The notes under the pieces: generated by a model
The model's input: the letters and a program-made list of their open reading frames with translations, nothing else
The model's database searches: none
What the model was told of the DNA's origin: nothing
Program-made: the position numbers and the translations under genes
In this document: one piece after another, positions 1 through 27,942 of the stretch
How positions within the stretch are numbered: the stretch's first letter is position 1
Layout of the letters: each line of letters opens with the position of its first letter
Assembly: GCF_900187035.1 (NCBI RefSeq)
Contig: NZ_LT906446.1
Span: 1,178,001-1,242,000 of the forward strand
Length of the DNA: 64,000 bases
Direction: 5' to 3'
Source: Megamonas hypermegale
GTDB taxonomy: Bacteria; Bacillota; Negativicutes; Selenomonadales; Selenomonadaceae

Positions 1-758
1 TAGGCATTATTGGCTGAACCTAATGAACAAGTATGACTTGCTGTAGTTTTTTTATCTATTCCTTCCATATAGGTGAGCGCTGCTAATAATTCTACATATC
101 GAGATTGTTCATCATCTGTTTCATCACAATGAACATCTATTAAGCGATCATATTTTAAAGCTAATTCAACTGCTTTATGAATAGATTTTTCACCAAATTC
201 TTTGGCATATTCAAAATGAGGTATTGCTCCTACACAATCTGCCCCCATTTTTAAACCTTCTTCAACTAATTCTACGCCATTTTTATATGCATACATTCCT
301 TCTTGTGGAAAAGATACTATTTGAATTGTTACAATATCTTTTAATTCTTCTTTTAACTCTAAAATAGCTTCTAATGCTTCAAAATTTTTATTAGTTACAT
401 CTACATGTGTTCTAATATACTGAACTCCTGCTAGTACTTCTTTTTTTATAGCTTTTTTAGCTCTATATTTTATATTTTCTTTTGTAAATTTAGATTTTGT
501 TTCGCTCCAGCGTTGTATTCCTTCAAATAATGTTCCTGTTTTGTTAGTTGCTCCTTCAGCTTTAGCAGTAAACACATAATCCAAATGTATATGCGGGTCT
601 ACATATGGAGGTACTACTAAATTACCTTTTAAATCAATAACATTATAATCTTCTTGTACTTCGATTTTGCCAATTCTTTCAAATTTGCCATCACTAACTA
701 AAATAGATTGTAAATCTTTTATGTCTTTTAAACGAACATTTATAAACAAAGTTTTCAT
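1..758 (-). CDS. Cytosine/creatinine deaminase-like amidohydrolase (partial)
   Basis: The gene starts at ATG 758 (AGGAGA about 9 nt upstream) and runs off the left edge, so only about 252 N-terminal residues are visible. My translation shows the amidohydrolase metal motif PHIHLD near residue 55 and the CodA-type signature DVHCDETDDEQSR near residue 210, followed by an ASHT motif. CodA-family enzymes deaminate cytosine, isoguanine or creatinine in the cytoplasm. It lies 32 nt downstream of a creatininase gene and a symporter on the same strand, so creatinine deaminase (creatinine to N-methylhydantoin) is a plausible activity; cytosine deaminase is the alternative. The family call is firm, the substrate is inferred from neighbours. 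Confidence 0.85.
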   Translation of the reverse strand, partial: MKTLFINVRLKDIKDLQSILVSDGKFERIGKIEVQEDYNVIDLKGNLVVPPYVDPHIHLDYVFTAKAEGATNKTGTLFEGIQRWSETKSKFTKENIKYRAKKAIKKEVLAGVQYIRTHVDVTNKNFEALEAILELKEELKDIVTIQIVSFPQEGMYAYKNGVELVEEGLKMGADCVGAIPHFEYAKEFGEKSIHKAVELALKYDRLIDVHCDETDDEQSRYVELLAALTYMEGIDKKTTASHTCSLGSANNA

Positions 759-790
759 GATATATTATCTCCTACGTGCTATCAAAAATC

Positions 791-1543
791 TTAGATGTTA
801 AATTCTTTTTTACAGATATTTACCAATTCAGGTAAAACTTTATCAACTATTATTTTACCTTTTTCAGCACTAGAATAAGCACAACTTGCTAATGCGCCTG
901 ATTCTGGCACATCATCTTTTTTCAATGGATATCTAAAATAAGGCAATGCATTTGTTGATACCACATCTACTGTTCTATCCATTCTGCAAAGTTGCGGTGC
1001 AAAATATAACATCAAAGATGTTTCTGTTACAGCTGCATGTTCTAATGCCCAACCAGGGAAAGGAACTTTATCAAATATCAAATCTATCACATCTTCAGGC
1101 ATTGGGTCCCACCAATTAGACTCAACAATTGTTGCTGCTCCATTTGTTTCTCTATTGACTAAATCCATTGCTTCAACTACGAATGCTTCATTTTCAAAAT
1201 GTGCATTCATAATGAAAATTTTTGTAAATCCATCTCTTACTAATTCCATCAATATATCATGAACTAAATAAATTAAAGTGCTACCATTTAAATCTATTGT
1301 TCCTGGAAATAATGGACCGCCACCGCTTAAGGGTTTTGATTTATAACCATAAACGATTGTCGGCATCACTACTCCATCTATTTTTTCTGCTAAATGTAGG
1401 GAAAATTGTTCTGCTATTTTAGCATCTGTACATAAAGGAAGATGTAAAGCGTGTTGCTCTGTTGAACCGATTGGTAAAATAACTACTTTATCTTTCTTAT
1501 CATTGAATTCTGGCCAAGTTAAATCATGCATATAATACGACAT
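791..1543 (-). CDS. Creatininase (creatinine amidohydrolase)
   Basis: 250 aa, ATG at 1543 behind AAAGGAAAGAGG. Creatininases interconvert creatinine and creatine using a binuclear metal site. The residue pattern fits the characterised Pseudomonas enzyme: E29-Q-H31, D40, and N-A-H115-F-E117-N reproduce its E34/H36/D45/H120/E122 ligand set with constant spacing. Further matches include WWD near 145, GW..EH near 165 and a TSLML segment, as well as the usual family length of about 250-260 aa. Many creatininase-family proteins carry NGHGGN instead, so NAHFEN argues for a true creatininase rather than a generic relative. It sits between the symporter gene (1580-3052) and the CodA-like deaminase, apparently in one operon. 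Cytoplasmic. Confidence 0.85.
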   Translation of the reverse strand: MSYYMHDLTWPEFNDKKDKVVILPIGSTEQHALHLPLCTDAKIAEQFSLHLAEKIDGVVMPTIVYGYKSKPLSGGGPLFPGTIDLNGSTLIYLVHDILMELVRDGFTKIFIMNAHFENEAFVVEAMDLVNRETNGAATIVESNWWDPMPEDVIDLIFDKVPFPGWALEHAAVTETSLMLYFAPQLCRMDRTVDVVSTNALPYFRYPLKKDDVPESGALASCAYSSAEKGKIIVDKVLPELVNICKKEFNI

Positions 1544-1579
1544 ATAAATTCCTCTTTCCTTTAATAAACTAACAAATTA

Positions 1580-3052
1580 TCATTTAGCTTCTATTACATT
1601 GCTAATTAAAGCTTTATTTTTTTTATTAATAACTGTAGAAATCACTATCATGCAGATAGCAGCTACAACAATAGCCATCAAGCCTGCAAACCAGAAGTTG
1701 AAACCAACTACATAGTTGAAAATGATATAAGCAATTGGTCCAACAATAGATGAAACTATTGCTCCTTCTTTAGTAGATTTTTTAGAAACAATAGCTGCAA
1801 ATAATGGAATACCAATACAGGAACCTATTCCACTCAATCCTAAGTACAATACAACGGATAAAAATTCTGGTGGGTCAACATAGTTAAATGCAAAACAGAT
1901 AAATGCTACTACTACAATCGCAATTCTAGTAACTAAAACTTCTTTTTCTGGTGTAGCATTTTTATTTATAGTTTTAGAATAGAAATCTCTACCTACTGCC
2001 TGACCAATTACCAATAAAACAGAAGTTGCTGTAGACATCATAGCTGCAAAAATACCAATCATCATAAAAGCTGCAACTGCTGTAGGTAAAAGGTTTATTG
2101 CCATTGTTACAGTTAAATAGTCTGCTTTAACATCTGGAAATAATACTCTACCTGTTAAACCTGCAATATAAAAACTATTGTAAATAACACTTAAAATTAA
2201 AGCTGTGATTAAAAATGTTCCAATTGTTTTTCTTTTTACATTTGGTATAGCTAAAAAACGAGAGCATAAATATGGTTGGCTTATAAAAATAACACACCAA
2301 AAAACAAAATTTCCCAAAACACCAGATAAAGACATTTGAGCATCAGGTGCTTCATCCTGAACAACTTTCAACATATTCGGGTCAATTTGTGATAATTTTT
2401 CTTCTAAACCAGTAAATCCACCAACAGCATTCAATGAAACAACTAATAATACAATACTGATAACCAGCATTGGCAAACCTTGAACAAAATCAGTCCATGC
2501 TACGGATCTTAAACCGCCAACGATAACATAAAAAATAATTACAACTGTTATAATAGCTAATCCCATGTTAAAAGAAATACCGGTAAAAGATTCTAGCAAA
2601 ACAGCTGCTCCTTTAAATTGTGCAACTAGTGGGAAAATATAGAAAACTGATATAACGCCTGCAATTATCAAACGTAATGCCGTACTATTATATCTTTGTC
2701 CCAAATATTCTGGAATGGTCAATGAACCAAGTTTTTCTGCTTGCTGTCTCATTTTTGGCATAAGCAATACAGCTGGAATGATTAACCCTGGTACAATAGC
2801 AATAACTACCCAATAATATGGCCATCCTACTGTAGACATAATTCCTGGGTCACCCATAAAACACGCAGCACTGATTGAGGATGTTACATAAGAAAAGGCT
2901 AATACTACTGTAGGAGTACTATGTCCGCCTAAATAATATTCAACATCAGCAGATACACCAGCTGCTTTTTGCTTACTAGAGAAATATGCTACTATTCCTA
3001 CAAAAACTAAAAATCCAAAAAAGAATATTATTGATAATTCCTGTAATGTCAT
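1580..3052 (-). CDS. Sodium:solute symporter (SSS family)
   Basis: 490 aa polytopic membrane protein with about 13 hydrophobic segments and SSS-family features, including an N-terminal YYLGG..TP segment (TM1 region), a conserved SAACFMGDPG stretch and GGLRSVAWTDFVQ in the middle. SSS proteins couple uptake of sugars, amino acids, nucleobases or similar solutes to Na+. It lies in the same direction as creatininase (37 nt downstream) and behind a 56-codon membrane ORF, so uptake of creatinine or a related cyclic amide is the likely role. That substrate is inferred from context only. An 18-bp palindrome at 3132-3149 lies upstream of the gene. Confidence 0.88.
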   Translation of the reverse strand: MTLQELSIIFFFGFLVFVGIVAYFSSKQKAAGVSADVEYYLGGHSTPTVVLAFSYVTSSISAACFMGDPGIMSTVGWPYYWVVIAIVPGLIIPAVLLMPKMRQQAEKLGSLTIPEYLGQRYNSTALRLIIAGVISVFYIFPLVAQFKGAAVLLESFTGISFNMGLAIITVVIIFYVIVGGLRSVAWTDFVQGLPMLVISIVLLVVSLNAVGGFTGLEEKLSQIDPNMLKVVQDEAPDAQMSLSGVLGNFVFWCVIFISQPYLCSRFLAIPNVKRKTIGTFLITALILSVIYNSFYIAGLTGRVLFPDVKADYLTVTMAINLLPTAVAAFMMIGIFAAMMSTATSVLLVIGQAVGRDFYSKTINKNATPEKEVLVTRIAIVVVAFICFAFNYVDPPEFLSVVLYLGLSGIGSCIGIPLFAAIVSKKSTKEGAIVSSIVGPIAYIIFNYVVGFNFWFAGLMAIVVAAICMIVISTVINKKNKALISNVIEAK

Positions 3053-3131
3053 TATAGCCTCTCCTTTGAAAAAAATAAAAGAGTTTACAGAATATATCCA
3101 TTGATAGATGATATCTCAACTTCTATATTCC

Positions 3132-3149
3132 ATAAACTCCATTGTTTAT
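3132..3149. repeat. Palindromic repeat, copy A (candidate operator)
   Basis: ATAAAC-TCCATT-GTTTAT: perfect 6-bp arms around a 6-bp spacer, located between the small membrane ORF and the symporter gene, i.e. upstream of the symporter. A second copy with one base difference lies at 3420-3437. Candidate binding site for the divergent PucR-type regulator; this is inference. Confidence 0.5.
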
Positions 3150-3173
3150 TATTAACTCCAAACTATTCAATTA

Positions 3174-3344
3174 CTAAACTCCCATAACATGTGTTTCTTT
3201 CATTTCAATTTGTTTATCATATTTTTTCATTTGAACATCAACTGCATCTAAAGGTTCTTTCTTATACATAAAATTTAATACTACGCCTAAAGACAATATA
3301 GCTGTAAAAGCCTGACATCCAAGCATAATTACCCAAGTTTCCAT
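3174..3344 (-). CDS. Small membrane protein, probable symporter accessory subunit
   Basis: A 56-codon ORF not called by length-limited gene finders. ATG at 3344 is preceded by a near-ideal ribosome site (TAAGGAGGT, 3352-3360) and the stop is at 3174. The translation has one hydrophobic segment (about residues 4-27, METWVIMLGCQAF onward), then a charged, Lys/Asp/Glu-rich cytoplasmic tail. It lies directly upstream of the SSS symporter in the same direction, 121 nt apart. Small single-span proteins preceding SSS transporters are known as symporter small accessory proteins, and the size, topology and position fit. No motif ties it to a specific substrate. Confidence 0.75.
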   Translation of the reverse strand: METWVIMLGCQAFTAILSLGVVLNFMYKKEPLDAVDVQMKKYDKQIEMKETHVMGV

Positions 3345-3661
3345 AATAAATACCTCCTTAAACTAAAAAAAGTTTATACCTAAAATAATCACAAACTCAT
3401 ATTGTAATTATTTTAATGTATAAACTCCGTTGTTTATATCTTATATTATTTTCTTGATGTTCATATTATATCTATTGGCAAATTAGAAGTCAACAAACTT
3501 TATCCTATTTACACAAAAAACAGCTATTTAAACAAATATTCAACCTAGTTTTTGTGCATAATAGACAAAATCATTTCCTTGATACTATTAATCTAGGATA
3601 ACACTGTGCAACATATGCTATAATTTTTGACATATATTAACTTTTATTGGAGGTATCCATT
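3345..3661. promoter_or_regulatory. Divergent intergenic regulatory region
   Basis: 317 bp without a gene between the small membrane ORF (minus) and the PucR-type regulator (plus). It is AT-rich and holds palindrome copy B. The start-proximal ends carry ribosome sites for both divergent genes. I could not assign a -35/-10 pair with confidence on either strand. Confidence 0.5.
3420..3437. repeat. Palindromic repeat, copy B (candidate operator)
   Basis: ATAAAC-TCCGTT-GTTTAT: same 6-6-6 palindrome as 3132-3149 apart from one spacer base. It lies upstream of the small membrane ORF, in the divergent promoter region shared with the regulator gene. Confidence 0.5.
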
Positions 3662-4852
3662 ATGTTTCAATGTAAAGATTTATTTAAACTATCATCTTTA
3701 TCTAAAATGAAAATAATTGCTGGAAATAAAGGACTACACAGAGTCATTCGTTGGAGCTATAAAGCAGAATCTATTCATCTTGCAAAATGGGTACACGGTG
3801 GTGAACTTTTAATCGTAAGTAAAATGGTCATTCATGAAGAGAATTTCGACCTATATAATTTTTTAAAGGAAGCTATTTCCTTAAATATGTCTGGTGCGCT
3901 TTTACTTACAGGAACAGGCTATATCGAACAAATCCCTCAATCTGTCATTGATTTAAGCAATCAAAAACATTTCCCGCTATTTCTAATACCATGGAATACG
4001 CCTCTTGTTGATATTTTTGAAGAATTAGGCCATGCTATAGCCAGTATTAATTTAATAAACGATAAACACAAAGATTTATTGTTTAGTATTATTTTTAATA
4101 ATAATTTATCTATTGATTACTTAAAATATCAAAATCCTGAAATCAATTTTTCTTTTGATGGCTCTTTACAATTTTTTGAAATTAATTTTCTTTTACCTCA
4201 AAATAAAAATTCTTTTAAAATGAATGATGTTGATAAAGACACAATCTGTCAATTTATTCATACGCTATTCCAAAATGAACAAATTCCAATATTATACTCT
4301 GGATATACTAAAAATATCATCGGTCTTATGAATGTCACCAATGCATCTACTGATACATTAAACGCTATTTTTAATGAAACATTAACTTATATCAATGAAA
4401 ATTATCCTAATTATATTATAAATATCGGCATTGGAACAAAACAACAATCTTTGAGCAAATGCAAACTAAGCTATGAACAAGCTTCTAAATGTATAAATCT
4501 TGCAATCAAACAAAATAAACAAAATACCATTCGTTATTATGAACAACTAGGTTTATATCAACTATTTTATGATATTAACAATAAAACATTACTCGAAAAT
4601 TTCGTAAGCAACATATTATCTAAATTAATAGCTTATGATGAAAAATACAATACTGATTTAATAAAAACTTTAGATGTGTATTTAAGTAAAAATTGCAATT
4701 TAAATCAAACAGCCGAAGAATTATTCATACATCGCAATACTATAAAATACAGATTACAGCGCATTGAAGAAATCACTAATACTAATTTAGATGATGCCTT
4801 TACGCGTTTAAATTTTTTCAATGCCATCTTAATAAAAAATTTTCTTCAATAA
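3662..4852 (+). CDS. PucR-family transcriptional regulator
   Basis: 396 aa from ATG 3662; an in-frame TTG at 3647 overlaps the ribosome site TTGGAGG, so the ATG is preferred. The N-terminal ~125 residues resemble the PucR ligand/purine-catabolism domain (KGLHRVIRWSYKAES, HGGELLIVSK). The middle holds a GGDEF-like CdaR region, and the C-terminus is the PucR helix-turn-helix (NLNQTAEELFIHRNTIKYRL). PucR/CdaR proteins usually activate catabolic genes for purines, hydantoin-like or other nitrogen compounds. It is divergent from the creatininase/symporter cluster, and two copies of an 18-bp palindrome lie in front of those genes, so it probably controls them. DNA-binding cytoplasmic protein; inducer unknown. 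Confidence 0.85.
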   Translation: MFQCKDLFKLSSLSKMKIIAGNKGLHRVIRWSYKAESIHLAKWVHGGELLIVSKMVIHEENFDLYNFLKEAISLNMSGALLLTGTGYIEQIPQSVIDLSNQKHFPLFLIPWNTPLVDIFEELGHAIASINLINDKHKDLLFSIIFNNNLSIDYLKYQNPEINFSFDGSLQFFEINFLLPQNKNSFKMNDVDKDTICQFIHTLFQNEQIPILYSGYTKNIIGLMNVTNASTDTLNAIFNETLTYINENYPNYIINIGIGTKQQSLSKCKLSYEQASKCINLAIKQNKQNTIRYYEQLGLYQLFYDINNKTLLENFVSNILSKLIAYDEKYNTDLIKTLDVYLSKNCNLNQTAEELFIHRNTIKYRLQRIEEITNTNLDDAFTRLNFFNAILIKNFLQ

Positions 4853-5415: not shown

Positions 5416-5419
5416 ATTA

Positions 5420-5444
5420 TGAACTGCACCCCAAAAGTTGGACA
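5420..5444 (+). repeat. IS copy 1 left terminal inverted repeat
   Basis: 25-bp IRL, starting TGAACTGCACCCC. It pairs imperfectly (20/25) with IRR at 6837-6861. It also forms the 5' arm of the hairpin at 5422-5475. Confidence 0.85.
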
Positions 5445-5475
5445 AAAAAACAACTTTTGGAGGTGCAGTTTTTTT
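5422..5475 (+). terminator. IS-borne terminator hairpin sequestering the orfA RBS
   Basis: A 19-bp stem, with arms 5422-5440 and 5451-5470 and one bulged A at 5461, closes a 10-nt loop and is followed by a T tract running up to the orfA ATG at 5476. This is a strong intrinsic-terminator structure. The only purine-rich ribosome site for orfA (GGAGG, 5459-5463) lies in the 3' arm, so any transcript entering from outside would terminate or hide the site. Copy 2 has the same structure. Confidence 0.8.
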
Positions 5476-5982
5476 ATGACTAAATACTCAAATGAATTTA
5501 AAGTTAAAGCAATTAAAATGGTTTTAAAAGGAGATTCTATTTCTCATGTAGCTAAAATTCTAAACATGCCAAACACAGCTTCTCTTCGTAGATGGATATT
5601 TCATTATGAAAATGGTGGCATCTCACAACTTCTTCATAAAAATCGTAAATATACTCCTATCTTTAAGCAAAAAGTTATTGAATATAAATGGCTACATCAT
5701 TTATCATTAAATCAAACAGCAGCCAAATTTTCCATTCCTAATACTGGTACAATTTCTACATGGGAAAAGTTGTATAGTTCTTATGGATTTTCTGGCTTAA
5801 TTTCTAAGAAACGAGGTAGACCATCTATGAAAAAATCTAAAAACAAACTTAACAAACCTAAAAAAGAACTTTCTTATGTTGAACAATTGGAACAAGAAGT
5901 TTATCAATTAAGGATGGAAAATGACTTATTAAAAAAGTGGCATGCCTTAATGAAGCAATGGGAAAAGGAAGGAAAACACTAG
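5476..5982 (+). CDS. IS3-family transposase OrfA (copy 1)
   Basis: 168 aa from ATG 5476; a longer in-frame extension upstream would run through the terminal repeat and is not used. There are two helix-turn-helix segments of the IS150 OrfA type: KVKAIKMVLKGDS..HVAKIL, then LNQTAAKFSIPNTGTISTWEK. The C-terminal part is a leucine-rich coiled coil (YVEQLEQEVYQLRMENDLLKK), the usual multimerisation zipper. The slippery A6G at 5931-5937 near the end lets ribosomes shift -1 into orfB to make the OrfAB transposase. Alone, OrfA normally binds terminal repeats and modulates transposition. Confidence 0.9.
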   Translation: MTKYSNEFKVKAIKMVLKGDSISHVAKILNMPNTASLRRWIFHYENGGISQLLHKNRKYTPIFKQKVIEYKWLHHLSLNQTAAKFSIPNTGTISTWEKLYSSYGFSGLISKKRGRPSMKKSKNKLNKPKKELSYVEQLEQEVYQLRMENDLLKKWHALMKQWEKEGKH

Positions 5983-6830
5983 TTCTAGTAATTGCTAAAT
6001 TAAGGAAAAAATATACTCTAAAAGCCCTATTAAACTATACAAAATTAGCTAAAAGCACATATTATGATGCATTAAAAAAATTATCAAAAGAAGACAAATA
6101 TAAAGGATTAAAAACATTAATTCATAATATTTGTAATAAAAATCATGGAAGATATGGATATAGAAGAGTAACTTTGCAGCTGCATAAACAAGGAATAAAA
6201 GTCAATCATAAAGTAGTTATGAGATTGATGAAAGAAGAAAATTTAACATGCAAGATAAGAGCAAAGAAATATAAATCGTATAGAGGGCAAGAAGGGAAAA
6301 TAGCTAAAAATATATTAAATAGAAATTTCAAAGCAGAAAAACCAAACGAAAAATGGGCAACAGATGTAACAGAATTTGCATTATGTAATGAAAAAATATA
6401 TTTATCACCAATAATAGATTTATATAACGGAGAAATAATAAGTTATAAAATATCGAAAAGACCAATACTAAAGCAAGTATTAGATATGGTAAAAGATGCA
6501 ACAAGAAAGATAAAAGAAACAAAAGGAATAATTCTACATTCAGACCAAGGATGGCAGTATCAGAATAGAAGATATCAGGAGTTATTAAAAGAAAAAGGCA
6601 TTATCCAAAGCATGAGCCGAAAAGGAAATTGCTTAGATAATGCCGTAATAGAAAATTTCTTTGGTTTGCTAAAAAGCGAATTGTTTTATTTAAAAAAATT
6701 TAAATCCGTTGAAGATTTTATAAAAGAGTTAAAATCTTATATAAAATATTATAATACAAAACGGATAAAGATAAAACTAAAAGGACTTAGTCCCGTAGAA
6801 TACAGAACTAAGTCTCAATTAATAGCTTAA
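5937..6830 (+). CDS. IS3-family transposase OrfB, DDE catalytic domain (copy 1)
   Basis: 297 aa, in the -1 frame relative to orfA and overlapping it by 46 nt. The catalytic triad is visible: D143 (WATDVTEF), D203 (HSDQGWQ) and E239 (DNAVIENFF), with 35 residues between the second Asp and the Glu, the IS3/retroviral rve spacing. An HTH_21-like N-terminal region (GRYGYRRVT) precedes the integrase core. It is probably made mainly as an OrfAB fusion after frameshifting on AAAAAAG. Intact. It differs from copy 2 at a handful of positions, for example E134 here versus Ser. Confidence 0.92.
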   Translation: MACLNEAMGKGRKTLVLVIAKLRKKYTLKALLNYTKLAKSTYYDALKKLSKEDKYKGLKTLIHNICNKNHGRYGYRRVTLQLHKQGIKVNHKVVMRLMKEENLTCKIRAKKYKSYRGQEGKIAKNILNRNFKAEKPNEKWATDVTEFALCNEKIYLSPIIDLYNGEIISYKISKRPILKQVLDMVKDATRKIKETKGIILHSDQGWQYQNRRYQELLKEKGIIQSMSRKGNCLDNAVIENFFGLLKSELFYLKKFKSVEDFIKELKSYIKYYNTKRIKIKLKGLSPVEYRTKSQLIA

Positions 6831-25092: not shown

Positions 25093-26469
25093 ATGTATGA
25101 TTTAGCTTTAAAAAATGGCTTTGTCGTAACCGATACAGAAGTTTTTCGCAGCAATATCTACGTAAAAGATGAAAAAATAGCTGAAATATCAACTGATGAT
25201 AAAGAAGCTAGACAGATTTTTGACGTCAATGGCAAATATATTTTGCCAGGCTGTATTGATACGCATTGCCATTTTCGCGACCCTGGAGTGACGCAAAAAG
25301 AAGATTTCATAACTGGCACACAAGCAGCCATAGCTGGTGGCGTGACGACTGTATTTGATATGCCAAATACAAATCCATCTGTATTATCTGCAAAAGATTT
25401 ACAGTGGAAAGCTGATTATTTCAGCAAAAAAGCGTATGCTGATTACGGCATTTGGGGCTTAGCTTTAGGCAAATTAAATTTAGATGAATTGCCTGCTCTT
25501 TGCTCCTCTGGTGTAAGTGCTGTCAAATTTTTCTGGGGATATGCCATCAATGCTAAGACAAAAGCATTGATTTACAATTATGACCCTAAAGATACAGATG
25601 TGGTATTACCACCTGGTGATGGCGAAGTTTATGAGCTCTTTTCCGAAATGGCTAAAACAGGTAAGATAATTGCCATTCATGCCGAAAACAACGAATTAAT
25701 CCAAACACTTACAGATAAATTAAAACAATCCGGCAGAACAGATTATGAAGCACTCGTAGACTCTCGCCCTGCACTGGCTGAAGCATTGACTATTCAAACA
25801 GCGGCATTACTTGCTAAAGCAACTGGTGCTCATCTGCACATCTTGCACTTAACTTCAAAAATGGGCGTTGATATAATCCGCAAGGCAAAAGCTGAAGGAG
25901 TGCATATAACGGCCGAAACTTGCCCGCAATATCTATTCTTATCCAGCAAAGATTATGATACAGTCGGTCCAATAATGAAAGTTTACCCTGTAATAAAACA
26001 CGAAGAAGACCGCTTGGCATTGTGGCAAGGTTTATTCGATGGAACAGTTGACTTCATGGCTTCTGACCATGCACCTCATTTGATTTCAGAAAAACAAGGG
26101 CCTCTCTTTTCCATCCCTGCCGGCATGTGTGGTGTAGAAACCATGTTGCCACTAATGTTAAACGAAGTTAATCGTGGCAAAATAACATTGCCATTCATCG
26201 CCAAAGTCTTAGCTAAAAATGCTGCTACTATCTATAAATTAAAAGATAAAGGCAGTCTTACTGTTGGCAAAGACGCTGATATGGTAGTAGTCGATATGCA
26301 AAAAATCGATACCATTGAAAACAATAAACTGCACAGTAAACAACCACTTACCGCTTTTGCTGGCAGAGAAATTCAAGGTTGGCCAATAAAGACATTTTTA
26401 CGCGGTCAACTCGTCGTAGATAACAATAATATCATCACAAACGCACCATGCGGTAAATGGATAAAATAA
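25093..26469 (+). CDS. Allantoinase/dihydroorotase-family cyclic amidohydrolase
   Basis: 458 aa, ATG 25093 with AAGGAG upstream. The metal site is complete: DTHCHFRDPG (HxH), the probable carboxylated lysine in GVSAVKFFWGY, then AIHAENN, LHILHLTS and SDHAPH. The length is closer to allantoinase/dihydropyrimidinase (AllB) than to typical PyrC of about 430 aa. Ring-opening of allantoin, a hydantoin or dihydroorotate is possible; no neighbour settles which. Monocistronic; its terminator downstream is split by IS copy 2. A link to the creatinine-type cluster 20 kb away (which may yield N-methylhydantoin) is speculative. Confidence 0.8.
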   Translation: MYDLALKNGFVVTDTEVFRSNIYVKDEKIAEISTDDKEARQIFDVNGKYILPGCIDTHCHFRDPGVTQKEDFITGTQAAIAGGVTTVFDMPNTNPSVLSAKDLQWKADYFSKKAYADYGIWGLALGKLNLDELPALCSSGVSAVKFFWGYAINAKTKALIYNYDPKDTDVVLPPGDGEVYELFSEMAKTGKIIAIHAENNELIQTLTDKLKQSGRTDYEALVDSRPALAEALTIQTAALLAKATGAHLHILHLTSKMGVDIIRKAKAEGVHITAETCPQYLFLSSKDYDTVGPIMKVYPVIKHEEDRLALWQGLFDGTVDFMASDHAPHLISEKQGPLFSIPAGMCGVETMLPLMLNEVNRGKITLPFIAKVLAKNAATIYKLKDKGSLTVGKDADMVVVDMQKIDTIENNKLHSKQPLTAFAGREIQGWPIKTFLRGQLVVDNNNIITNAPCGKWIK

Positions 26470-26526: not shown

Positions 26527-27420
26527 TTAAGCTACTAATTGAGACTTAGTTCTGTATTCTACGGGACTAAGTCCTTTTAGTTTTATCTTTATCCGTTTTG
26601 TATTATAATATTTTATATAAGATTTTAACTCTTTTATAAAATCTTCAACGGATTTAAATTTTTTTAAATAGAATAATTCGCTTTTTAGCAAACCAAAGAA
26701 ATTTTCTATTACGGCATTATCTAAGCAATTTCCTTTTCGGCTCATGCTTTGGATAATGCCTTTTTCTTTTAATAACTCCTGATATCTTCTATTCTGATAC
26801 TGCCATCCTTGGTCTGAATGTAGAATTATTCCTTTTGTTTCTTTTATCTTTCTTGTTGCATCTTTTACCATATCTAATACTTGCTTTAGTATTGGTCTTT
26901 TCGATATTTTATAACTTATTATTTCTCCGTTATATAAATCTATTATTGGTGATAAATATATTTTTTCATTACATAATGCAAATTCTGTTACATCTGTTGC
27001 CCATTTTTCGTTTGGTTTTGATGCTTTGAAATTTCTATTTAATATATTTTTAGCTATTTTCCCTTCTTGCCCTCTATACGATTTATATTTCTTTGCTCTT
27101 ATCTTGCATGTTAAATTTTCTTCTTTCATCAATCTCATAAATACTTTATGATTGACTTTTATTCCTTGTTTATGCAACTGCATAGTTACTCTTCTATATC
27201 CATATCTTCCATGATTTTTATTACAAATATTATGAATTAATGTTTTTAATCCTTTATATTTGTCTTCTTTTGATAATTTTTTTAATGCATCATAATATGT
27301 GCTTTTAGCTAATTTTGTATAGTTTAATAGGGCTTTTAGAGTATATTTTTTCCTTAATTTAGCAATTACTAAAACTAATGTCTTCCTTCCTTTTCCCATT
27401 GCTTCATTAAGGCATGCCAC
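26527..27420 (-). CDS. IS3-family transposase OrfB (copy 2)
   Basis: 297 aa, DDE catalytic domain with the same triad as copy 1: Asp in WATDVTEF, Asp in HSDQGWQ and Glu in DNAVIENFF. It differs from copy 1 at about four residues (for example Met for Leu near 80, Phe for Val near 94, Ser for Glu at 134). It begins in the -1 frame at the AAAAAAG heptamer (27426-27420) inside orfA, so the active product is probably the OrfAB frameshift fusion. Open throughout. Confidence 0.92.
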   Translation of the reverse strand: MACLNEAMGKGRKTLVLVIAKLRKKYTLKALLNYTKLAKSTYYDALKKLSKEDKYKGLKTLIHNICNKNHGRYGYRRVTMQLHKQGIKVNHKVFMRLMKEENLTCKIRAKKYKSYRGQEGKIAKNILNRNFKASKPNEKWATDVTEFALCNEKIYLSPIIDLYNGEIISYKISKRPILKQVLDMVKDATRKIKETKGIILHSDQGWQYQNRRYQELLKEKGIIQSMSRKGNCLDNAVIENFFGLLKSELFYLKKFKSVEDFIKELKSYIKYYNTKRIKIKLKGLSPVEYRTKSQLVA

Positions 27421-27887
27421 TTTTTTAATAAGTCATTTTCCATCCTTAATTGATAAACTTCTTGTTTTAATTGTTCAACATAAGAAAGTTCTTTTTTAGG
27501 TTTGTTAACCTTATTTTTAGATTTAGATTTTTTCATAGATGGTCTACCTCGTTTCTTAGCAAGCAAACCAGAAAATCCATAAGAACTATACAACTTTTCC
27601 CATGTAGAAATTGTACCAGTATTAGGAATGGAAAATTTGGCTGCTGTTTGATTTAATGATAAATGATGTAGCCATTTATATTCAATAACTTTTTGCTTAA
27701 AGATAGGAGTATATTTACGATTTTTATGAAGAAGTTGTGAGATGCCACCATTTTCATAATGAAATATCCATCTGCAAAGAGAAGCTGTGTTTGGCATGTT
27801 TAGAATTTTAGCTACATGATAAATAGAATCTCCTTTTAAAACCATTTTAATTGCTTTAACTTTAAATTCATTTGAGTATTTAGTCAT
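27375..27887 (-). CDS. IS3-family transposase OrfA (copy 2)
   Basis: 170 aa from ATG 27887. It has the same helix-turn-helix and leucine-zipper layout as copy 1 but two extra residues in the Lys/Ser-rich linker (KKSKSKNKVNKP). One change, Arg to Cys in the first helix-turn-helix (TASLCRW versus TASLRRW), falls in a likely DNA-contact helix and could weaken binding. A longer in-frame start would run into the terminal-repeat hairpin and is rejected. Confidence 0.88.
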   Translation of the reverse strand: MTKYSNEFKVKAIKMVLKGDSIYHVAKILNMPNTASLCRWIFHYENGGISQLLHKNRKYTPIFKQKVIEYKWLHHLSLNQTAAKFSIPNTGTISTWEKLYSSYGFSGLLAKKRGRPSMKKSKSKNKVNKPKKELSYVEQLKQEVYQLRMENDLLKKWHALMKQWEKEGRH

Positions 27888-27942
27888 AAAAAAACTGCAC
27901 CTCCAAAAGTTGTTTTTTTTGTCCAACTTTTGGGGTGCAGTT
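27888..27942 (-). terminator. IS copy 2 left-end terminator hairpin
   Basis: Minus-strand equivalent of the copy 1 structure: AACTGCACC..CCAAAAGTTG pairs with CAACTTTTGG..GGTGCAGTT, followed by a T tract abutting the orfA ATG. The loop is one base longer. Transcripts coming down from mfd/GntR run into it. Confidence 0.78.

What the first reader, a model, noticed from the sequence alone, without database searches (positions are those of the whole stretch)
1..4852. Creatinine-type catabolic cluster with both a creatininase and a CodA-like deaminase
A creatininase whose metal ligands align at the right spacing (E29/H31/D40/H115/E117) is encoded with a CodA-family deaminase, an SSS symporter and a divergent PucR regulator. 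Creatininase and creatinine deaminase act on the same substrate by different routes, so having both in one unit is unusual and suggests gut-bacterial uptake and breakdown of creatinine or a related cyclic compound.
Basis: partly seen in the sequence, partly recalled or inferred. Interest (0 to 1): 0.72.

Follow-up and report, generated by a model that had tools for sequence, protein, structure and literature searches.

The report
Gut bacterial creatine and creatinine operon
A small gene cluster in a gut-type bacterium probably imports creatine or creatinine, the muscle waste products, and strips nitrogen from them with two enzymes in a row; the same enzyme pair recurs in bifidobacteria, clostridia and other gut bacteria, so it may be a common and little-noticed way that gut microbes use creatine.

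Summary
A true creatininase (TIGR04448, 316.8 bits against a cut-off of 235) lies 32 bp before a CodA-family deaminase and 36 bp after an SSS symporter, with a divergent PucR regulator. The deaminase runs 496 bp off the window. Left of the deaminase is a cas-like cluster, so the unit ends there.

The pairing is the rule in this creatininase subfamily, not an oddity: 24 of 29 named loci carry the deaminase within about 8 kb, including Bifidobacterium, Clostridium and Ruminococcus, while the importer is swapped (SSS, MFS or ABC). The deaminases form one fully supported clade next to the Klebsiella 5-methylcytosine deaminase (PDB 4R7W) and outside canonical CodA. One marker residue, Tyr67, also appears in an archaeal creatininase-linked CodA whose nearest relatives have Ala.

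Best reading: not two competing routes but one sequence. [quoted passage not shown] Activity is untested. Verdict: a new variant of a known kind.

The parts
1..758 (-). CodA-family deaminase, N-terminal 252 of 417 aa (the rest lies left of the window, genome 1177505-1178758); proposed creatinine deaminase
   Evidence: (NF006685 529.9 bits, cut-off 483)
791..1543 (-). creatininase (creatinine amidohydrolase), 250 aa, all metal ligands present
   Evidence: (TIGR04448 316.8 bits, cut-off 235)
1580..3052 (-). SSS-family sodium:solute symporter, 490 aa, proposed creatine/creatinine importer
   Evidence: TIGR00813 188.8 bits, cut-off 184; panF and PutP models below cut-off; PF00474
3174..3344 (-). 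unannotated 56-aa membrane microprotein with an AAGGAGG ribosome-binding site, proposed symporter partner
   Evidence: no Pfam or NCBIfam match
3345..3646 (.). divergent intergenic region; would hold the operon and pucR promoters
   Evidence: promoter-like matches are not above chance (47 found, 41.2 expected for the 6 kb scanned)
3647..4852 (+). PucR-type regulator (PucR domain and HTH_30), divergent; a likelier ATG start is at 3662

Best explanation
This is a nitrogen-scavenging operon for creatine and creatinine. Step 1 (inferred): the SSS symporter, perhaps with its microprotein, imports creatine and/or creatinine. Step 2 (family-level inference; the enzyme looks intact): creatininase interconverts creatine and creatinine. 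Step 3 (inferred from clade, active site and context): the CodA-like enzyme deaminates creatinine irreversibly to N-methylhydantoin and ammonia, which pulls step 2 towards creatinine, so both compounds yield ammonia. Step 4 (unknown): N-methylhydantoin is exported, or opened by an allantoinase-like enzyme encoded elsewhere. PucR probably switches the unit on when the substrate or nitrogen status calls for it (inferred).
For: (1) Creatininase over the curated cut-off with its catalytic residues intact. (2) Conserved linkage: deaminase in 24 of 29 named loci. In 121 family genomes all 5 with the creatininase have the deaminase, against 3 of the other 116 (Fisher p 2.8e-7). (3) The importer changes (SSS, MHS-type MFS, Pot-type ABC) while the enzyme pair stays. 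(4) The deaminases form one clade (100/100) outside canonical CodA, with changes beside the catalytic residues. (5) Tyr67 in 27 of 27 creatininase-linked rows, against 7 of 34 others and 1 of 19 codB-linked; in haloarchaea the creatininase-linked CodA has Tyr67 and its four nearest relatives Ala67. (6) Precedent: C. glutamicum CodA is called a creatinine deaminase; strain ATCC 14067, which has creatininase and CodA and no creatinase, grows on creatine and creatinine. T. creatinophila, which ferments both compounds, has creatininase and cytosine deaminase genes. (7) PotD-type ABC, NCS1 and BCCT importers sit beside creatininase and an M24 creatinase-like gene in Proteobacteria, so importer types of this sort go with creatine units.
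Against: No activity shown. The nearest characterised enzyme to the clade is a 5-methylcytosine deaminase, and the Ser at position 315 is shared with it. Three of 29 loci with ample or fair flank lack the deaminase (L019, L021, L031), and seven Tyr67 deaminases have no creatininase nearby, one of them beside a CodB-like permease (L098). The tree-aware pair test has too few pairs to be significant (2-3 same way, 0 other way, p 0.25-0.5). No dedicated hydantoinase or sarcosine gene is adjacent.
Confidence: 0.62

Rival explanations
1. The deaminase is a 5-methylcytosine or cytosine deaminase for pyrimidine salvage, and its place next to creatininase is incidental or serves a different task.
For: It passes the CodA model. 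Its sister is the 5-methylcytosine deaminase 4R7W, which shares Cys249, Thr278, Glu279, Gln313 and Ser315; PMC6186785 (passages) reports that replacing the canonical Asp there opens CodA to 5-methylcytosine.
Against: 4R7W and many other CodA-family genes sit beside codB (19 rows counted), whereas this clade sits beside creatininase in 24 of 29 named loci. Tyr67, Thr219 and Asn280 separate it from 4R7W. No nucleobase genes are adjacent.
Confidence: 0.15
2. Same wiring, different substrate: the pair handles another cyclic guanidine or amidine, such as glycocyamidine/guanidinoacetate, and not N-methylated creatinine.
For: Creatininase specificity cannot be fixed from sequence; Y121F and D175A against P. 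putida hold in 33 of 33.
Against: Positions 121 and 175 also vary in creatininases linked to an M24 creatinase-like gene, so they do not mark a different substrate. TIGR04448 is an equivalog model for creatininase.
Confidence: 0.13
3. The deaminase acts first and the creatininase then opens the ring of its product (N-methylhydantoin to N-carbamoylsarcosine), so the two form a linear pathway in the other order.
For: Creatininase-family members open cyclic amides (recalled), and no HyuB-type hydantoinase is in the genome.
Against: No activity of this kind was found in the papers read. Several deaminase loci of the clade lack creatininase, and an allantoinase-like gene exists in the genome.
Confidence: 0.07

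Closest known systems
Corynebacterium glutamicum ATCC 14067 creT-crnA with CrnT and CodA (PMC8864220)
   Same: Creatininase, CodA-type creatinine deaminase and importers; growth on creatine and creatinine as nitrogen sources; N-methylhydantoin is the deaminase product.
   Different: There the genes are at separate loci and repressed by AmtR, the creatine importer is an MFS protein, and that strain also has HyuB and CshA. Here they form one compact unit with PucR and SSS. The C. glutamicum CodA sequence was not compared here.
Tissierella creatinophila creatinine fermentation (PMC5364220)
   Same: Anaerobe with creatininase and cytosine deaminase genes.
   Different: It also has N-carbamoylsarcosine amidase, a D-hydantoinase-like gene and sarcosine/glycine reductase; the order of the creatininase and deaminase genes is not stated.
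Klebsiella pneumoniae 5-methylcytosine deaminase, PDB 4R7W
   Same: Sister of the deaminase clade; shares Ser315 and Gln313 and is linked to a PucR.
   Different: Linked to codB and not creatininase; Ala67, Ile219, Ser280.
Creatininase units with an M24 creatinase-like gene (Paracoccus, Shinella, Azoarcus, Leisingera plasmids)
   Same: Creatininase with solute importers.
   Different: An M24 protein, shown to carry a Creatinase_N domain in Paracoccus, stands where the deaminase stands here.
Halobellus limi plasmid CodA-creatininase-SSS set
   Same: Same three protein families side by side in an archaeon.
   Different: The CodA is from another branch (47% to L111), the SSS is 25.6% identical, and no PucR is annotated nearby.

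Membership tests
Creatininase (TIGR04448, EC 3.5.2.10) | score over the curated equivalog cut-off | tested here: met
   316.8 against 235 bits
Creatininase (TIGR04448, EC 3.5.2.10) | binuclear metal ligands and W154, W174, H178, E183 of P. putida (residue roles recalled) | tested here: met
   33 of 33 creatininases compared
Creatininase (TIGR04448, EC 3.5.2.10) | catalysis of creatinine/creatine interconversion | not testable with these tools
   needs an enzyme assay
CodA-like amidohydrolase (NF006685) | score over the curated cut-off; metal-binding HxH, His, Asp and Glu, Gln present | tested here: met
   529.9 against 483 bits; residues
Canonical cytosine deaminase (E. coli CodA) | Asp315 (Asp314 in PDB numbering) and codB partner | tested here: not met
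   Ser315; no CodB match in L002, which was searched
5-methylcytosine deaminase (Kpn00632, 4R7W) | replaced Asp315 | tested here: met
   Ser315 in both
5-methylcytosine deaminase (Kpn00632, 4R7W) | same clade and same context (codB) | tested here: not met
   sister outside the 34-row clade (98/83 and 100/100); creatininase instead of codB
Creatinine deaminase (EC 3.5.4.21) | creatinine iminohydrolase activity | not testable with these tools
   no curated model for it appeared; inferred from context only
Creatinine-creatine-sarcosine route | creatinase gene in the unit | tested here: not met
   neighbours on both sides read; the whole genome was not searched for creatinase
N-methylhydantoin-N-carbamoylsarcosine route | ATP-dependent hydantoinase HyuB in the genome | tested here: not met
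   PF02538 absent from the genome, control rang in 6 of 14; an AllB-like enzyme is present
SSS symporter (TIGR00813) | score over cut-off | tested here: met
   188.8 against 184 bits

The most novel reading that the evidence does not exclude
A previously undescribed, widely shared gut-bacterial module drains host creatine and creatinine: creatininase run towards creatinine plus a distinct Tyr67/Ser315 creatinine deaminase clade, with interchangeable importers and, in the SSS version, a new symporter microprotein. It occurs in bifidobacteria, Clostridium neonatale and other clostridia, Ruminococcus and Selenomonadaceae, and would make N-methylhydantoin a microbial product of host creatine and offer a gene marker for extra-renal creatinine loss.
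Probability: 0.45. Interest if true: 0.72.

Novelty: new variant of a known kind. Interest (0 to 1): 0.5.

Why it matters
Loss of creatinine in the gut is a known complication of kidney-function tests (PMC11764249, passages), and infants receive creatine and creatinine in milk. A 2023 review says the specific genes of this metabolism are hardly characterised in common infant gut symbionts and notes a negative correlation of creatine with Bifidobacterium (PMC10215027, section 6). A defined two-enzyme module with a residue signature gives genes to knock out and to count in metagenomes.

Tried and rejected
Rejected: canonical cytosine deaminase (Asp315 replaced, separate clade, no codB). Rejected: that the pair is rare. 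Rejected: that Y121F or D175A in the creatininase marks a new substrate, since creatininases next to an M24 creatinase-like gene vary there too. Rejected as proof: the shared Pot-type ABC importer, since the binding proteins of Ruminococcus and Proteobacteria are only distantly alike (about 21-27% where the match is long).

Uninformative: GrdB/sarcosine reductase in the genome (no control rang); promoter and terminator scan (chance level); the tree-aware pair test (too few pairs). The Mantel correlation of creatininase and deaminase distances (n 26, r 0.92, 0 of 5000 permutations) is not corrected for species relatedness and may only reflect shared descent. A second deaminase clade, Lys67 with Cys315 (L115-L120), is mostly codB-linked and was left aside.

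Rows dropped: L113 (frame-shifted) from all deaminase trees; L017 and L018 (duplicates of L099 and L100) and L112_1 from the tree; also L121-L124 from that. The fixed-difference count used 28 linked rows with those duplicates in (26 distinct) and 8 canonical rows picked by their HDD motif, so the differences at 313 and 315 are partly by selection; L106, L107 and L109, which vary at 219, 278, 279 or 313, were not in that canonical set.

Recalled, from no call: the residue roles of P. putida creatininase; the equilibrium of creatininase; that C. glutamicum NCgl0075 was among the enzymes of Hitchcock 2014 (that paper is not held); a guess that the genus is Megamonas, which I do not rely on; Cas gene names, read by eye.
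Full report
WHAT IS THERE. The window starts inside a compact minus-strand unit: SSS symporter (1580-3052), creatininase (791-1543) and a CodA-family deaminase (758 leftwards), with gaps of 36 and 32 bp, and a divergent PucR regulator at 3647-4852. The genome is held (2,230,342 bp, one contig, 99.99% complete), so the deaminase could be read whole: 417 aa, genome 1177505-1178758. Leftwards of it the frames read by eye as a cas cluster and a CRISPR array, so no creatinase, hydantoinase or sarcosine gene follows. To the right of pucR are a YbaK-type editing protein and what looks by eye like an IS3-type element.

A MISSED PART. Between pucR and the symporter lies a 56-aa frame at 3174-3344 (-), after an AAGGAGG sequence. 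Relatives of 33-60 aa stand just before the symporter in all 8 SSS-type loci I aligned: the window, L014, L125, L015, L016, L017, L018 and L020. Over 32 codons and 28 pairs, third positions differ most (298, 216 and 457 differences at positions 1, 2 and 3; 182 of 577 codon differences are silent), as expected of a gene. No Pfam or NCBIfam model matches. In 121 genomes of the family it occurs only in the 5 with this creatininase; the model was built from those 5 genomes and three others, so finding them is by construction, but its absence from the other 116 is information. I propose that it is a symporter partner.

THE CREATININASE. TIGR04448 scores 316.8 against a cut-off of 235, and P. putida creatininase is the closest solved structure. 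Ligands E34, H36, D45, H120 and E122, and S78, W154, W174, H178 and E183, are the same in 33 of 33 sequences; Y121 is Phe and D175 is Ala in all 33. Six creatininases from other units, four of them next to an M24 creatinase-like gene, vary at these two positions as well (Y, F or M; D, E or A).

HOW COMMON IS THE PAIR. One scan of named genomes with the creatininase alignment gave 29 loci. tblastn found a CodA-like gene in the same stretch in 24 of 29. The five misses are Lactonifactor (L019), C. polynesiense (L021), a Clostridium MAG (L031, with about 1 kb on one side) and two short contigs (L032, L037). The 24 include 12 Bifidobacteriaceae, Clostridium neonatale and C. tarantellae, Ruminococcus MAGs, Clostridiales 1_7_47_FAA and Selenomonadaceae. 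In a sample of 121 family genomes, 5 have the creatininase over the cut-off and 8 have CodA over the cut-off; all 5 are among the 8, against 3 of the other 116 (Fisher p 2.8e-7), and in all 5 the two lie within about 8 kb.

IMPORTERS ARE SWAPPED. SSS appears in 6 of the 29; Bifidobacterium L028 carries an MFS protein of the metabolite:H+ family, best equivalog ProP but below its cut-off (327.6 against 544), and Ruminococcus L038 a Pot-type ABC system. PucR-like regulators were found in 13 of 29 by tblastn; Bifidobacterium regulators are more distant, and one was confirmed as PucR by Pfam (L028). A constant enzyme pair with changing importers argues for one substrate pool.

THE DEAMINASE IS NOT CANONICAL CodA. 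In a 60-row tree every creatininase-linked bacterial CodA falls in one 34-row clade (bootstrap/SH-aLRT 100/100). The sister row (98/83) is Klebsiella L133, which matches PDB 4R7W over its full 412 residues and is codB-linked; E. coli CodA lies further out. Against 8 canonical rows, 28 linked rows (26 distinct) differ uniformly at 67 (Thr to Tyr), 219 (Ile to Thr), 249 (Thr to Cys), 278 (Leu to Thr), 279 (Val to Glu), 313 (His to Gln) and 315 (Asp to Ser; E. coli full-length numbering). Five of the seven lie within three residues of metal or catalytic residues in sequence. PMC6186785 (passages) reports that the residue at 315 sets specificity and is Ser in the 5-methylcytosine deaminase; 4R7W itself has Ala67, Ile219 and Ser280. 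So Ser315 alone does not tell creatinine from 5-methylcytosine, and Tyr67, Thr219 and Asn280 are what set this clade apart.

A SECOND ORIGIN. In the archaeon Halobellus limi a CodA, a creatininase and an SSS gene lie side by side. That CodA belongs to another branch (47% to L111; tree). Its four nearest plasmid relatives (61-63% identical, three of them beside codB) have Ala67, while Halobellus has Tyr67. Overall Tyr67 is in 27 of 27 creatininase-linked rows, 7 of 34 others and 1 of 19 codB-linked rows. Tree-aware pairs are too few for significance (2-3 in the same direction, 0 opposed). The seven Tyr67 rows without creatininase include plasmid copies beside an MFS gene in Citrobacter and Latilactobacillus sakei, and copies in Aerococcus and Enterococcus. 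I read these as creatinine-only users, which is inference.

HOW IT LIKELY WORKS. Creatininase catalyses both directions (PMC8864220, passages and discussion). Coupled to an irreversible deaminase, it would turn either creatine or creatinine into N-methylhydantoin and ammonia. In C. glutamicum, CodA is annotated creatinine deaminase (PMC1578569, passages) and N-methylhydantoin is called a dead-end product; strain ATCC 14067, with CreT-CrnA and without creatinase, grows on creatine and creatinine, while ATCC 13032, without CreT-CrnA, uses only creatinine (PMC8864220, passages and sections 19 and 20). ATCC 14067 also has HyuB and CshA, so it is not an exact copy. T. creatinophila carries both gene types (PMC5364220, whole text). 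In this genome HyuB is absent (control rang in 6 of 14), but an AllB-like cyclic amidohydrolase lies at window 25093-26469 (368 against 357.85 bits), so I leave the fate of the product open.

WHAT SPEAKS AGAINST. No activity is shown. The nearest characterised enzyme to the clade is a 5-methylcytosine deaminase. Three loci with ample or fair flank have the creatininase without the deaminase. Substrates such as glycocyamidine cannot be excluded.

NOVELTY. Searches of the held library listed no paper whose title or abstract start describes a linked creatininase-CodA unit in gut bacteria. The library lacks most subscription journals, so this is weak evidence. The enzymes and the two-step idea are known, while the compact gut operon, its spread, the Tyr67 signature and the microprotein seem not to be described. 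I call it a new variant of a known kind.

Noticed in passing
L002:2721-13067 (genome 1166720-1177066), left of the window: Frames read by eye as a type I-B-like cas cluster (cas6, cas8b, cas7, cas5, cas3, cas4, cas1) with a CRISPR array; not checked by models.
   Followed up: no
window 25093-26469 (+): Lone AllB-like allantoinase/hydantoinase gene (368 bits, cut-off 357.85) between thrS and an IS3-type element; a candidate for opening N-methylhydantoin, untested.
   Followed up: partly
window 5419-6830 and 26527-27926: Two very similar IS3-type insertion elements, by eye, in opposite orientation about 20 kb apart.
   Followed up: no
L128 (Enterococcus faecalis plasmid NZ_CP143580.1): A Tyr67-clade deaminase with two M20-type hydrolase genes between IS1216 copies, like a mobile catabolic cassette.
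   Followed up: partly
L129 (Latilactobacillus sakei conjugative plasmid) and L126 (Citrobacter werkmanii plasmid): Neighbouring genes for an MFS transporter and a Tyr67-clade deaminase on plasmids, without creatininase.
   Followed up: partly
L154 (Halomarina plasmid NZ_CP119993.1): Creatininase near an SSS gene 71% identical to the Halobellus one, but no CodA in the stretch.
   Followed up: partly
L145 (Ancylobacter pratisalsi plasmid): Creatininase with a TadA-like deaminase, a hydantoinase B gene, a Pot-type ABC importer and urease accessory genes: possibly another creatinine route.
   Followed up: no
L115-L120: A separate CodA-like clade with Lys67 and Cys315, four of its six members beside a codB-like gene; function unknown.
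   Followed up: no
L042 (Clostridiales bacterium 1_7_47_FAA): The creatininase-deaminase pair lies beside xanthine dehydrogenase genes (XdhA 1144.5 bits, cut-off 780), hinting at a shared purine/nitrogen island.
   Followed up: no
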